Assembly: GCA_041545745.1 (NCBI GenBank)
Contig: CP168152.1
Location: 2,912,001 to 2,976,000 of the forward strand
Length of the DNA stretch: 64,000 nucleotides
Direction of reading: 5' to 3'
From: Stenotrophomonas indicatrix
Lineage (GTDB): Bacteria; Pseudomonadota; Gammaproteobacteria; Xanthomonadales; Xanthomonadaceae
Under the pieces are notes generated by a model that saw nothing but the letters and a program-made list of their open reading frames with translations, did no database searches and was not told the DNA's origin. Of this stretch, positions 5,872 through 47,077 are shown piece by piece; position 1 is the stretch's first letter; the number at the start of each line of letters is the position of its first letter. The translations under genes were made by a program, and so were the position numbers.

Positions 5872-5887
5872 CAACGCCACCGCGCTG

Positions 5888-5947
5888 GTAGATGCCCACC
5901 CTGGTTGGCGCTTGTTCGCACGTGCGCCAACCAAGGTTGGCGGCTAC
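5888..5947 (+). repeat. SMAG repeat dimer
   Basis: Two GTAG-headed palindromes in opposite orientation (5888-5910 and 5924-5947), each with a stem around GCCAACC/GGTTGGC, forming one larger inverted repeat between nbaC and kynU. Confidence 0.85.
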
Positions 5948-6038
5948 CGCATCATGCGGCGCTGGCGCTGGGTTCGCAGCCACCGGGTGATGCCCCAGGC
6001 GCTACACTGGCAGTCCCGTTGCAGCCTGTTGCCCGACC

Positions 6039-13381: not shown

Positions 13382-13447
13382 CGGTGGATCCGGGGGAAGG
13401 CGTGGTGGAGAGCATAACCGAGCGCCGGGGGATGGACCCCGCGTGGC

Positions 13448-13549
13448 GGATGACCGGCATATCCGCCGGGACACGCCGTAAACCCATCCATGGGGGCTCG
13501 ATCGCGCCATCCATGGCGCTCACGGTCCCGGCGGATATGCCGGTCATCC
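13448..13549 (-). repeat. Branched inverted-repeat element, copy 1
   Basis: Perfect 25-bp arms (13448-13472 and 13525-13549) enclose a 52-nt core. Read on the minus strand the core has hairpin 1 GCGCC-ATGGAT-GGCGC, the linker GATCGAGC, and hairpin 2 CCC-ATGGAT-GGG, ending in GGCGT. The core is 46/52 identical to copy 2, while the middle of the outer arms is unrelated. It lies between two minus-strand genes, so the canonical strand is the transcribed one. Confidence 0.9.
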
Positions 13550-13603
13550 ACCTGGCAGATTCACGGCCGGCGTCGGGTCAGGTGGTCGCAAAGGTCAAGG
13601 GCA

Positions 13604-24085: not shown

Positions 24086-24150
24086 TGCCAACCAAGGTTG
24101 GCATCTACCAAAGCAGCGGCATGCCCGGTAGCCGCCAACCTTGGTTGGCG
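24086..24150. repeat. SMAG repeat dimer
   Basis: Inverted pair: 24086-24109 (ending CTACC) and 24128-24150 (starting GTAG), each with a GCCAACC/GGTTGGC stem. It lies between the RND terminator and the convergent small membrane protein gene. Confidence 0.85.
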
Positions 24151-41857: not shown

Positions 41858-44900
<3,043 letters not shown>

Positions 44901-44940
44901 GGTTTTCCTGCGGCGGCGGCCGCGTGCGCTGCCTGCGGCA

Positions 44941-45000
<60 letters not shown>

Positions 45001-45038
45001 GTCAAGAGCGGCTCTGGATTGCTGCTAGCTGGGCGGGT

Positions 45039-45128
45039 CGGGATGGGCCAGCGGGACACGCCGTGAACCCGTCCCTGGGGGCTCGATGGCGCCATCCATG
45101 GCGCCAACGGTCCCGCTGGCCCATCCCG
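45039..45128 (-). repeat. Branched inverted-repeat element, copy 2
   Basis: Perfect 19-bp arms (45039-45057 and 45110-45128) around a 52-nt core that matches copy 1 at 46 of 52 positions. On the minus strand, hairpin 1 is GGCGCC-ATGGAT-GGCGCC, then ATCGAGC, then hairpin 2 CCC-AGGGAC-GGG. The outer arm differs from copy 1 except for GGATG and GGGAC blocks. Its canonical strand is opposite to the flanking genes. Confidence 0.9.
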
Positions 45129-45191
45129 CCCCACCTCTGACAGATTCCCGGTGACGGATCGAAGAGCATTGGGTTGTCGGGACGGAATTTG

Positions 45192-45226
45192 AAAGAGGGA
45201 CGCGGCTTCGCCGCGTCCCTCTTTGG
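45192..45226. terminator. Strong bidirectional stem downstream of purB
   Basis: AAAGAGGGACGCGG paired with CCGCGTCCCTCTTT around CTTCG, with T-rich DNA (GGTTTTGGGTTTTGGGG) after it on the plus strand. It is almost 300 bases past purB, so read-through of copy 2 would end here. Confidence 0.8.
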
Positions 45227-45246
45227 TTTTGGGTTTTGGGGTCTTT

Positions 45247-45310
45247 GTAGAGCCGAGCCCATGCTCGGCTGCTTGTTCCAACAGCAAGCCGAGCATGGGC
45301 TCGGCTCTAC
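45247..45310. repeat. SMAG dimer, AGCCGAGC type
   Basis: GTAGAGCCGAGCCCATGCTC at 45247 onward is repeated inverted at 45286-45310, ending GGCTCTAC. The pair is separated by 14 bases. A decayed relative lies at 58924-58950. Confidence 0.85.
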
Positions 45311-45399
45311 AGATGCACGAGCAAGCGCAGCGCGCGACCCGCTCTTGCCTTTGATTTTCTTCTTCCATTCCGTGGCGGACCGCGCAGGAAACTGTCAGG

Positions 45400-45503
45400 G
45401 GCCGGGCGGGTGGGCTGCGCGGGGGCGTGAGCCGCATGGATGCGGCGATCGAGCTTACATGGACGTACTTGCAGCGTCCCCCGCGCAGCCCACCCGCCCG
45501 GCC
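45400..45503 (+). repeat. Branched inverted-repeat element, copy 3
   Basis: Perfect 26-bp arms (45400-45425 and 45478-45503) around a core of 52 nt. The core reads CGTGA, hairpin 1 GCCGC-ATGGAT-GCGGC (45431-45446), linker GATCGAGCT, hairpin 2 TAC-ATGGAC-GTA (45456-45467), then a tail ending GCGT. Core layout and length are the same as copies 1 and 2, but both internal stems and the arm have changed on both sides at once. Confidence 0.9.
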
Positions 45504-45679
45504 AAACCCGGCTTTTGCTTTCAGCGACCCACCCAGACCCCGCCACGAGGGGCTCAGCCGTTGGCCGGAACCCCGCGACAAACCACCACACGTGCGCAAT
45601 CCCATCGAACGTCGGACAATGGAGCCCTTGGCGGCCCGCCACGCCGCCCCTCCCGCTTTCCGCTGCAAGGAACTCCCCC

Positions 45680-47077
45680 ATGGCCGCCCGCAAGTCCACC
45701 TCCCCCCTGATCGAAGTCCACGCCCGTCGCGGCCAGCCGCTGGGCATGGCCCCGGCCACCTTCCTGCGCGACTTCTGGCAGAAGCGCCCGCTGTTGATCC
45801 GTAATGCGTTCGCCGACTTCCAGACCCCCGTACAGCCGGAAGACCTGGCGGGCCTAGCCTGCGAAGAGGGCGTGCTGGCCCGCCTGATCGAGCATGATAA
45901 GACCCAGGACAGCTGGCGCGTGCGCAGCGGCCCGTTCCAGGAAGACATCTTCCCCGCCCTGCCCGACCACGACTGGACGCTGCTGGTGCAGGACGTGGAC
46001 AAATGGGACAAGGACGTGCGCGCCCTGATCGAACACTTCAGCTTCCTGCCGCGCTGGCGCATGGACGATGTGATGATCAGCTTCGCCGCTACCGGTGGCT
46101 CGGTCGGTGCCCATGTCGACCAGTACGACGTGTTCCTGCTGCAGGCCCACGGCCACCGCCGCTGGCAGATCGATGCCAGCGAATCGATCAAGGGCAAGCG
46201 CCCGCCGCTGGGCTTCCGCCCCGACGTGGAACTGAAGCTGCTGGAAGTGTTCAAGCCGACCCACGACTGGGTGCTGGCGCCGGGTGACATGCTGTACCTG
46301 CCGCCGAACGTCCCGCATCACGGCGTCGCCGAAGACCCGTGCCTGACCTTCTCGTTCGGCATGCGCGCGCCGTCCTCGGCCGAGCTGATCAGTGACTATC
46401 TGGACACGTTGATCGCCGACGCCGACGAGAACATCCGCTACCAGGATGCCGACCTGAAGGCACCGGCCGACCCGAACGAAATCGACACCGTGGCGATGGC
46501 GCGGGTGATCACCGCGCTCAACGCCATCCGTATGAACGACCCGGACAAGCTGGGCGACTGGTTCGGCCGCTTCATCACCACCTACCGCGCCGCCGGCGAG
46601 GTGATGGCCCACCAAGCCGCGCCACCGCAGGAAGAAGTACTCGAGGCCCTGCAATCGGGCCTGCTGCTGCAGCGTCACCCGTGGGCGCGCCTGGCCTGGC
46701 GCCGGGCCAAGCGCGGCGCCAGCCTGTATGTCAGCGGCCAGGACTTCGCGCTGCCGGTCAAGGACGCGCAGCGCCTGGCCGGTGCCGAGCAGCTCGATGC
46801 TGCCGCCTACCGCGGCCTGTCCGACAAGGGACGTGCGGTGGTCCAGCAGCTGCTGGTCGGCGGCGTATTCCAGCTGATCGATCCGAACGAGGTGTATGCC
46901 GACGAGGAGGAAGAGGTGCTGGGTGAGGTGATCGAGGGCCGTGAGCAGGTCGAAGTCATCGACGCTGACGCCGTGTCCGATGACGTCCACCTGGTGACCG
47001 TGCACGACGACGGCATTGAAGTGATCGTCAACTTCGACGACCACGACGAAGACGACAGCGACCCCAGCCGCGGCTGA
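45680..47077 (+). CDS. roxA: Ribosomal oxygenase, JmjC/cupin type (RoxA-like)
   Basis: Fe(II)/2-oxoglutarate oxygenase related to E. coli YcfD/RoxA, which hydroxylates an arginine of ribosomal protein L16. The start MAARKSTSPLIEVHARRG is followed by RDFWQKRPLLIRNAF; metal ligands are H145 and D147 in GAHVDQYDVF, and His213 or 214 in LPPNVPHHGVAED. The protein is 465 aa, about 90 longer than E. coli RoxA; the extra part is at the C-terminus and ends in a very acidic stretch. The next gene starts four bases after its stop. It needs 2-oxoglutarate, the substrate of the sucAB operon downstream. Confidence 0.93.
   Translation: MAARKSTSPLIEVHARRGQPLGMAPATFLRDFWQKRPLLIRNAFADFQTPVQPEDLAGLACEEGVLARLIEHDKTQDSWRVRSGPFQEDIFPALPDHDWTLLVQDVDKWDKDVRALIEHFSFLPRWRMDDVMISFAATGGSVGAHVDQYDVFLLQAHGHRRWQIDASESIKGKRPPLGFRPDVELKLLEVFKPTHDWVLAPGDMLYLPPNVPHHGVAEDPCLTFSFGMRAPSSAELISDYLDTLIADADENIRYQDADLKAPADPNEIDTVAMARVITALNAIRMNDPDKLGDWFGRFITTYRAAGEVMAHQAAPPQEEVLEALQSGLLLQRHPWARLAWRRAKRGASLYVSGQDFALPVKDAQRLAGAEQLDAAAYRGLSDKGRAVVQQLLVGGVFQLIDPNEVYADEEEEVLGEVIEGREQVEVIDADAVSDDVHLVTVHDDGIEVIVNFDDHDEDDSDPSRG

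What the first reader, a model, noticed from the sequence alone, without database searches (positions are those of the whole stretch)
45400..45503. Structured repeat family with covarying stems (copy 3, defines the architecture)
Seen directly: a perfect 26-bp outer stem encloses a core of exactly 52 nt with two internal hairpins. Compared with copies 1 and 2, read in the canonical orientation, the layout is the same: CGT, hairpin 1 with loop ATGGAT, linker ATCGAGC, hairpin 2 with loop ATGGAC/ATGGAT, tail ending GCGT. Stems change in pairs: hairpin 1 GCCGC/GCGGC versus GCGCC/GGCGC; hairpin 2 TAC/GTA versus CCC/GGG; inner outer-stem GGGGG/CCCCC versus GGGAC/GTCCC. Loops and linker stay fixed while stems covary in all three helices. 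That is the mark of selection on a branched shape, either a structured RNA or a cruciform DNA site handled by a protein. I know of no named family with this architecture, though such repeats may be common in Xanthomonadaceae genomes.
Basis: partly seen in the sequence, partly recalled or inferred. Interest (0 to 1): 0.85.

Follow-up and report, generated by a model that had tools for sequence, protein, structure and literature searches.

The report
Repeat with two CsrA-like hairpin loops
Scattered between the genes of this bacterium are at least 150 copies of a branched hairpin repeat that belongs to a little-studied family found across Gammaproteobacteria, and both of its loops look like landing sites for the global RNA regulator CsrA/RsmA, a prediction that can now be tested.

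Summary
The element is a three-way junction: a copy-specific outer stem and two hairpins, with compensatory changes in each helix (93.6% of cells paired, 62.2% shuffled; RNAalifold finds the same fold unaided). The genome holds at least 150 copies at 100 sites, none inside a gene called by my ORF caller; 49 of 50 close neighbour pairs are head-to-head. The class search found it in 60 of 369 genomes. G·T mismatches exceed A·C 92:7 here and 162:26 in a cross-genus set, so one strand is the folded one.

Both loops are nearly always C-ANGGAN-G, the CsrA/RsmA hexaloop. A model with the loops masked still gave 60 of 60 such loops in a sister genome and 22 of 26 in 13 other loci.

It is not nameless: the core is homologous to Yersinia YPAL/RU-2, Rfam TwoAYGGAY (Csr-Rsm clan) matches some copies below threshold, and Ysr224 reads as its reverse complement.

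Best reading: a YPAL-type repeat carrying a two-site CsrA dock. Binding and transcription are untested; a single-stranded-DNA role is a serious rival.

The parts
45400..45503 (+). copy 3 (the finding): whole element, canonical strand +
45400..45425 (+). outer stem, 5' arm of copy 3 (pairs with 45478-45503)
   Evidence: 26 nt, 100% complementary
45478..45503 (+). outer stem, 3' arm of copy 3
45426..45451 (+). hairpin 1 of copy 3: stem 45426-45435 / 45442-45451 (two G-A mismatches and a T-T mismatch inside), loop ATGGAT 45436-45441
   Evidence: structure by covariation; letters
45453..45475 (+). hairpin 2 of copy 3: 3 bp + 3 bp with 5-nt bulge, loop ATGGAC 45459-45464
   Evidence: not in the single-sequence fold
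45032..45135 (-). copy 2, head-to-head partner of copy 3
13445..13552 (-). copy 1, single copy between two minus-strand genes
45136..45399 (.). centre of the head-to-head pair: terminator-like hairpin 45192-45224 and a GTAG-type REP doublet 45246-45311
   Evidence: the REP letters equal the Smal1 REP printed in PMC2817692 (passages)
43533..44900 (+). gene whose stop lies about 130 nt before copy 2 (purB-like by my reading of the translation; not tested against a family library)
45680..47077 (+). gene starting about 175 nt after copy 3 (cupin/ROXA-like by my reading; not tested against a family library), used as synteny anchor

Best explanation
The element is a member of a class-wide family of small palindromic repeats that share their core with Yersinia YPAL/RU-2. 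Its functional form is the folded canonical strand, a three-way junction that holds two CsrA/RsmA-type hexaloops (C-ANGGAN-G) with 20 nt between the GGA triplets. The most likely job is to dock one CsrA/RsmA dimer across both loops when the canonical strand is transcribed. The copies would then act together as a dispersed CsrA/RsmA-binding (titrating or RNA-tethering) set, spread by old mobility and reshuffled by recombination between copies. Shown: fold, folded strand, loop identity, copy number, placement, core exchange at fixed loci. Inferred: transcription of the canonical strand, CsrA binding, any regulatory effect, the original mobility.
For: Covariation in each helix. G-T 92 vs A-C 7 mismatches in 123 distinct arm sets of this genome, and 162 vs 26 in 132 copies of a cross-genus set that includes some Stenotrophomonas and Xanthomonas loci. 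Loop-masked model: 60 of 60 loops in the 30 ungapped of 32 hits in G021 are CANGGANG and vary only at the N positions; 22 of 26 loops in 13 other loci, one of them of the own genome. PMC7652899 (passages) gives the ANGGAN hexaloop, the SELEX consensus RUACARGGAUGU and bridging of sites 10-63 nt apart. [quoted passage not shown] PMC4333381 (passages) proposed that it binds CsrA. For 84 of 127 classified copies an upstream gene lies on the canonical strand and could transcribe it. CsrA is found in 49 of 50 near-complete element-bearing genomes against 231 of 264 others (Fisher p 0.025).
Against: No binding or expression data. Copies antisense to both neighbouring genes show the same strand bias (26:2 in 35 copies) as copies sense to both (15:3 in 35), so read-through from neighbours is not needed for the constraint; in other genera antisense to both is the commonest context (24 of 81 copies outside called ORFs, 19 convergent, 14 sense to both, 9 divergent, 15 with a neighbour missing). 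The expression reports met are for Ysr224, the opposite strand (passages). Hairpin 1 stems are long, while most SELEX ligands had four or fewer contiguous pairs. Five of 25 same-genus genomes gave no match, so the element looks dispensable. Of all 60 element-bearing genomes, 5 gave no CsrA hit, one of them near-complete (G235). Loop exceptions exist (4 of 26; single cases in this genome).
Confidence: 0.5

Rival explanations
1. A single-stranded-DNA element: the folded canonical strand is the substrate of a transposition or recombination protein, as in REP/IS200-type systems, and the loops are read as DNA; the CsrA likeness is coincidence or secondary.
For: One-strand constraint that does not depend on gene orientation; YPAL is reported as mobile, with target duplications and filled/empty sites (PMC2229807, passages); head-to-head dimers with unlike partners resemble REP families (PMC3733652, passages; 49 of 50 close pairs; 0 of 44 readable pairs with partners 70 or more of 78 identical against 4.2 expected).
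Against: The two loops keep the CsrA determinant and vary mainly at its free positions. Of 20 syntenic sites in a sister species, 18 hold at least one model match in the same gap; the other 2 have 1.4-1.5 kb instead and were not examined, so no clean empty site was seen. No orientation skew of the 51 singles (28+/23-).
Confidence: 0.33
2. A 3'-end hairpin of a neighbouring gene's mRNA that slows decay or ends transcription, as proposed for YPAL transcripts.
For: 100 of 100 sites lie between called genes: 38 convergent, 53 tandem, 7 divergent, 2 undetermined (no genome-wide baseline was computed). 84 of 127 copies have an upstream gene on the canonical strand. PMC2229807 (passages) mentions an effect on upstream transcripts for YPAL.
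Against: 35 copies antisense to both neighbours carry the same strand bias, and in convergent sites the nearer opposing gene would carry the strand that is not selected. A plain barrier does not need conserved loop letters.
Confidence: 0.12
3. Palindrome arms kept perfect by template-switch correction or gene conversion alone, without selection on a fold.
For: Cores, and in some copies inner arms, differ between species at the same locus.
Against: Does not explain the excess of G-T over A-C mismatches in unrelated arms or near-fixed loop letters with freely varying stems.
Confidence: 0.05

Closest known systems
YPAL / RU-2 (Yersinia palindromic sequences, about 168 bp)
   Same: Homologous 52-53-nt core from CGT to GCGT: gapped local scores 24, 26 and 34 for the three window copies against shuffle maxima of 15-16; multi-copy, intergenic.
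   Different: Outer arms and flanks unrelated; the core has one base less between the loops; no target duplications or empty sites shown here; here head-to-head pairs and at least 150 copies.
TwoAYGGAY RNA (Rfam RF01731, clan CL00106)
   Same: Outer stem, hairpin with CANGGANG loop, AG, second hairpin with a GGA loop, CG; same strand.
   Different: Second hairpin is a long uninterrupted stem in Rfam, 3+3 bp with a 5-nt bulge here; own-genome matches stay under the cut-off (best 34.1 of 43 bits).
Ysr224 (Rfam RF02770, Yersinia sRNA)
   Same: Its consensus reads as the reverse complement of this core (alignment); more than one copy in Y. ruckeri (PMC12112432, passage).
   Different: Modelled on the opposite strand; matches here 23-40 bits against a cut-off of 70.
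GTAG-type REPs (SMAG) with RAYT transposases
   Same: High copy number, intergenic, head-to-head dimers; such REPs sit in the centre of pairs.
   Different: No GTAG head, three-way junction instead of one hairpin, loops conserved rather than stems.

Membership tests
YPAL / RU-2 | conserved core sequence | tested here: met
   sequence printed in PMC2759123 (passage)
YPAL / RU-2 | about 168 bp with conserved YPAL flanks | tested here: not met
   arms and flanks differ; so it shares the core family and is not filed as YPAL in the strict sense
YPAL / RU-2 | intergenic position, close after stop codons (the second half is recalled, not read in a call) | tested here: met
   own ORF caller, 100 sites, 0 inside called genes
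YPAL / RU-2 | target duplications and filled/empty sites | tested here: inconclusive
   20 syntenic sites, no clean empty site seen; target duplications not examined
YPAL / RU-2 | targets that span or adjoin dyad symmetry (PMC2229807) | tested here: inconclusive
   two common arm types without core sought as exact patterns in 25 genomes; one possible deletion product, otherwise none; unique arms not tested
TwoAYGGAY (RF01731) | score over the Rfam cut-off of 43 bits | tested here: not met
   whole window, cut-off; 44900-45690, none at E<=10; own genome, 9 matches, best 34.1 bits
TwoAYGGAY (RF01731) | two terminal ANGGAN-type loops on a branched stem | tested here: met
Ysr224 (RF02770) | score over the Rfam cut-off of 70 bits | tested here: not met
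   23-40 bits, reverse strand
CsrA/RsmA-binding RNA | ANGGAN hexaloop closed by C-G | tested here: met
CsrA/RsmA-binding RNA | two sites 10-63 nt apart | tested here: met
   20 nt between the GGA triplets (alignment)
CsrA/RsmA-binding RNA | binding of the protein | not testable with these tools
   needs a gel shift or CLIP-seq
CsrB/RsmX/Y/Z sponge sRNA | discrete sRNA gene with own promoter and terminator | not tested
   no expression data; no promoter scan was run; no shared flanks across genera seen by eye
GTAG REP (SMAG) | GTAG/GTGG head next to the palindrome | tested here: not met
   upstream consensus around GGAAACTGTCGAAGG

The most novel reading that the evidence does not exclude
A class-wide mobile repeat that carries a two-site CsrA/RsmA dock and has turned many gammaproteobacterial genomes into dispersed CsrA sponges, including Xanthomonadaceae, where CsrB/CsrC homologues are reported absent.
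Probability: 0.25. Interest if true: 0.85.

Novelty: new variant of a known kind. Interest (0 to 1): 0.6.

Why it matters
It ties together three things filed apart, the YPAL mobile repeats, the TwoAYGGAY RNA of unknown function and the Ysr224 sRNA, and gives them a shared core layout and one testable partner, CsrA/RsmA. [quoted passage not shown] My literature searches listed no paper that I recognised as linking YPAL or this repeat to CsrA; that covers listings and passages of the held open library only, and the original YPAL paper was not read.

Tried and rejected
Chance or low complexity: rejected. Function as a plain 3' hairpin of a neighbouring gene: weakened, not excluded. Core inserted into a ready-made palindrome: for two common arm types, arms without the core were sought as exact patterns in 25 genomes; one type was found 0 times, the other in one genome as what looks like a deletion product. 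Shared promoter beside the element: no shared flanks across genera by eye. Pairing of column 14 with 64 replaced by 14 with 39, which covaries. A first ungapped comparison with RU-2 was in the wrong register because RU-2 has one extra base (8 of 17 invariant columns, 17 of 28 pairs) and was replaced by a gapped one. A pattern for genome contigs and viral contigs was off by one base and found nothing, then corrected. The sequence-string literature search listed papers that look unrelated. An earlier count said that the purB-ROXA gap holds the pair in all 10 relatives; the calls bear out 9 of 10 with a match and 8 of 10 with a pair.

Rows dropped or chosen: alignment A2 holds 76 of 80 pattern matches (2 dropped for a poor outer stem, 2 for a one-base deletion). 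Alignment A3 holds 52 of 81 rows, and the 81 were chosen by the loop pattern and by at least 10 of 13 paired outer positions, which raises the paired fraction of the outer stem and fixes the loops there; the masked model was trained on rows chosen the same way. In one search, 7 of 130 arm sets were dropped for register. In one search, 51 of 132 copies fell inside ORFs of a crude longest-ORF caller and were left out of the context counts. Of 125 masked-model hits only the 32 in G021 were counted, because nearly all other loci had been fetched by a loop pattern; 2 of the 32 were not ungapped (one lacks part of hairpin 1, one has an insertion in loop 2). Of 17 new loci (L358-L374), 4 were not read because of their length. 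In one search, 44 of 49 pairs could be read in register. On A3, 5 of 500 shuffles reached the number of pairs with double changes and 27 of 500 the number of further pair types; the other measures were never reached.

Full report
Check of the observation. Copy 3 (45400-45503) is a perfect 26-nt inverted repeat around 52 nt; copies 1 and 2 have the same layout on the minus strand. A loose pattern for the two loops and linker found 57 places in the 4.66-Mb genome and 0 for the reversed control. A covariance model from 76 copies matched 150 places, which is the number of candidates that call scored, so 150 is a lower bound; the weakest match is a broken copy.

Structure. On 76 own-genome rows (72 distinct), 95.6% of cells form standard pairs against 68.9% shuffled. 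On 52 rows from across the class, 93.6% against 62.2%, 464 double changes against 125, and the slid controls pair only 33-46% of cells. These rows were pre-selected for a mostly paired outer stem, so the outer-stem share is biased upward; hairpins 1 and 2 were not selected for pairing. RNAalifold, given no structure, returned the same fold with 28 pairs, 25 of them with double changes. The junction holds an outer stem whose letters differ from copy to copy (some arm types are shared by many copies), hairpin 1 (columns 14-23 with 30-39, with T16 fixed and columns 16-37 not a standard pair in 41 of 52 rows), A40, and hairpin 2 (41-46 with 53-55 and 61-63, with a 5-nt bulge). Outside the loops and their closing pairs, T16, A40, G41, C60 and C63 are invariant in the 52 rows. 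The single-sequence fold of copy 3 does not show hairpin 2.

Which strand. If DNA on both strands or either RNA were used alike, G·T and A·C mismatches should be equally common. In 123 distinct arm sets there are 92 G·T, 7 A·C and 40 other mismatches on the canonical strand. In 132 copies with distinct arms from a cross-genus set, which includes Stenotrophomonas and Xanthomonas loci, 162, 26 and 74. So one strand is the folded one. The bias is similar for copies antisense to both neighbouring genes (26:2, 35 copies), sense to both (15:3, 35 copies) and convergent (48:2, 49 copies); 8 divergent copies are too few (2:0). This speaks against a need for read-through from neighbours and is the main point for a DNA-level or autonomous-transcript reading. 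The rows are related through exchange between copies, so the p-values are too small.

Loops. From model hits rather than from the pattern, loop 1 is ATGGAT in 140 of 150 and loop 2 is A-N-GGA-Y in 145 of 150 rows read at fixed columns; the remainder are shifted registers, other ANGGAN loops and a few true exceptions such as ATGAAT, ATGCAT and AACGAC. Because that model knew the loops, I masked C-ANGGAN-G and rebuilt it. In 400 kb of the sister genome G021 it found 32 copies; in the 30 ungapped ones, 60 of 60 loops are CANGGANG and vary only at the two N positions. In 13 other loci, one of the own genome and 12 of others, 22 of 26 are; the exceptions are CAGGGATA, CATGGGCG, CAGGAAGG and CTGGGAGG. 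This is the RsmE/CsrA hexaloop as described in PMC7652899 (passages), and the TAC-ANGGAC-GTA form of hairpin 2 is close to the SELEX consensus given there.

Placement. The 150 copies form 100 sites, none inside a gene called by my own codon-usage ORF caller: 38 convergent, 53 tandem, 7 divergent, 2 undetermined; no genome-wide baseline was computed. Of 50 neighbour pairs closer than 700 bp, 49 are minus-then-plus (head-to-head) and one is minus-minus. In 44 of 49 pairs that could be read, partners are never 70 or more of 78 identical, against 4.2 expected; the mean identity of partners is only slightly low (P 0.10 for 78 nt, 0.03 for the core). Preference for head-to-head dimers and for unlike partners is reported for REP families (PMC3733652, passages). 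The centres hold REPs and terminator-like hairpins by eye; in this window the Smal1 REP of PMC2817692 (passages).

Evolution. In 400 kb of G021, 20 syntenic sites could be placed. By the loop pattern 16 keep the element in place and orientation; by the masked model 18 hold at least one match in the same gap, and 2 (3374928, 3674638) hold 1.4-1.5 kb with none. Of 26 orthologous copies compared, 8 differ at 5 or more core positions while both arms together differ at 2 or fewer; 6 have 3 or fewer core differences; some of the rest are affected by one-base shifts. This fits exchange of cores between copies. At the purB-ROXA gap, 9 of the 10 close relatives examined (loci L154-L163) have model matches at the same place, 8 of them as a pair, 5 of these with one partner at only 26-40 bits; L157 gave none. 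Of 25 same-genus genomes including this one, 20 have matches and 5 have none. In the class draw, 60 of 369 genomes match with at most 12 candidates scored each, 54 of 369 with the masked model. In a phylum draw, 19 of 299 match, all of the same class; how many of the 299 lie outside the class was not shown.

Known relatives. TwoAYGGAY (RF01731): 9 sub-threshold matches in this genome, 5 of them on copies in the list and on the same strand; over threshold in 2 of 31 genomes, G030 and G027. Its consensus has the same order of parts, but a long second hairpin. [quoted passage not shown] Ysr224 (RF02770) reads as the reverse complement. The RU-2/YPAL sequence printed in PMC2759123 (passages) contains the core; gapped local scores 24, 26 and 34 against shuffle maxima of 15-16, and 7-11 on the reverse strand. 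PMC2229807 (passages) reports YPAL target duplications and mobility.

Judgement. The fold, the folded strand, the loops and the family tie are shown. CsrA/RsmA binding is the best explanation for two loops that keep that protein's determinant. It is an inference, and orientation independence keeps a single-stranded-DNA role alive. CsrA is present in 49 of 50 near-complete element-bearing genomes against 231 of 264 others, and in 55 of all 60 element-bearing genomes, which is weak because CsrA is nearly universal and, I believe, mostly missing from small genomes. The recount for this report changed several numbers but none of the odds.

Noticed in passing
window 45246-45311: Inverted doublet of the GTAG-type REP TGTAGAGCCGAGCCCATGCTCGGCT (Smal1 of PMC2817692) in the centre of the head-to-head pair.
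   Followed up: partly
window 5887-5948, 24087-24149, 43405-43480: Further REP-like inverted repeats.
   Followed up: no
L199 10084-10235; L160 near 891-961; L162 near 1153-1227: A stretch beginning GTGAGGGCGCTTTGC (about 75 nt in L199) inserted at about the same place in the hairpin-2 loop of copies at different loci and genomes: perhaps a small element that targets this loop.
   Followed up: partly
L156 958-1026 and L154 3448-3530: Other copies broken in hairpin 2 by different sequences, one looking like an insertion-sequence end (by eye).
   Followed up: no
L169 3060-3134: Variant with a 10-bp A+T-rich hairpin 1 (GCTAGAAAAC/GTTTTCTAGC) but unchanged loop.
   Followed up: no
L357 1137 and 1556: A same-genus genome without R1 matches (G018) carries a plus-then-minus pair of TwoAYGGAY-like elements with longer second hairpins.
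   Followed up: partly
window 44940-44995: Six-base tandem repeat (GGCAAC)n on the downstream flank of copy 2; similar GTTGCN runs follow many copies (by eye).
   Followed up: no
L351, L352, L353: Three viral contigs carry exact core-pattern matches.
   Followed up: no
L354 789-1135 and 1501-1607: TwoAYGGAY elements next to the RNase P RNA gene in G030.
   Followed up: no
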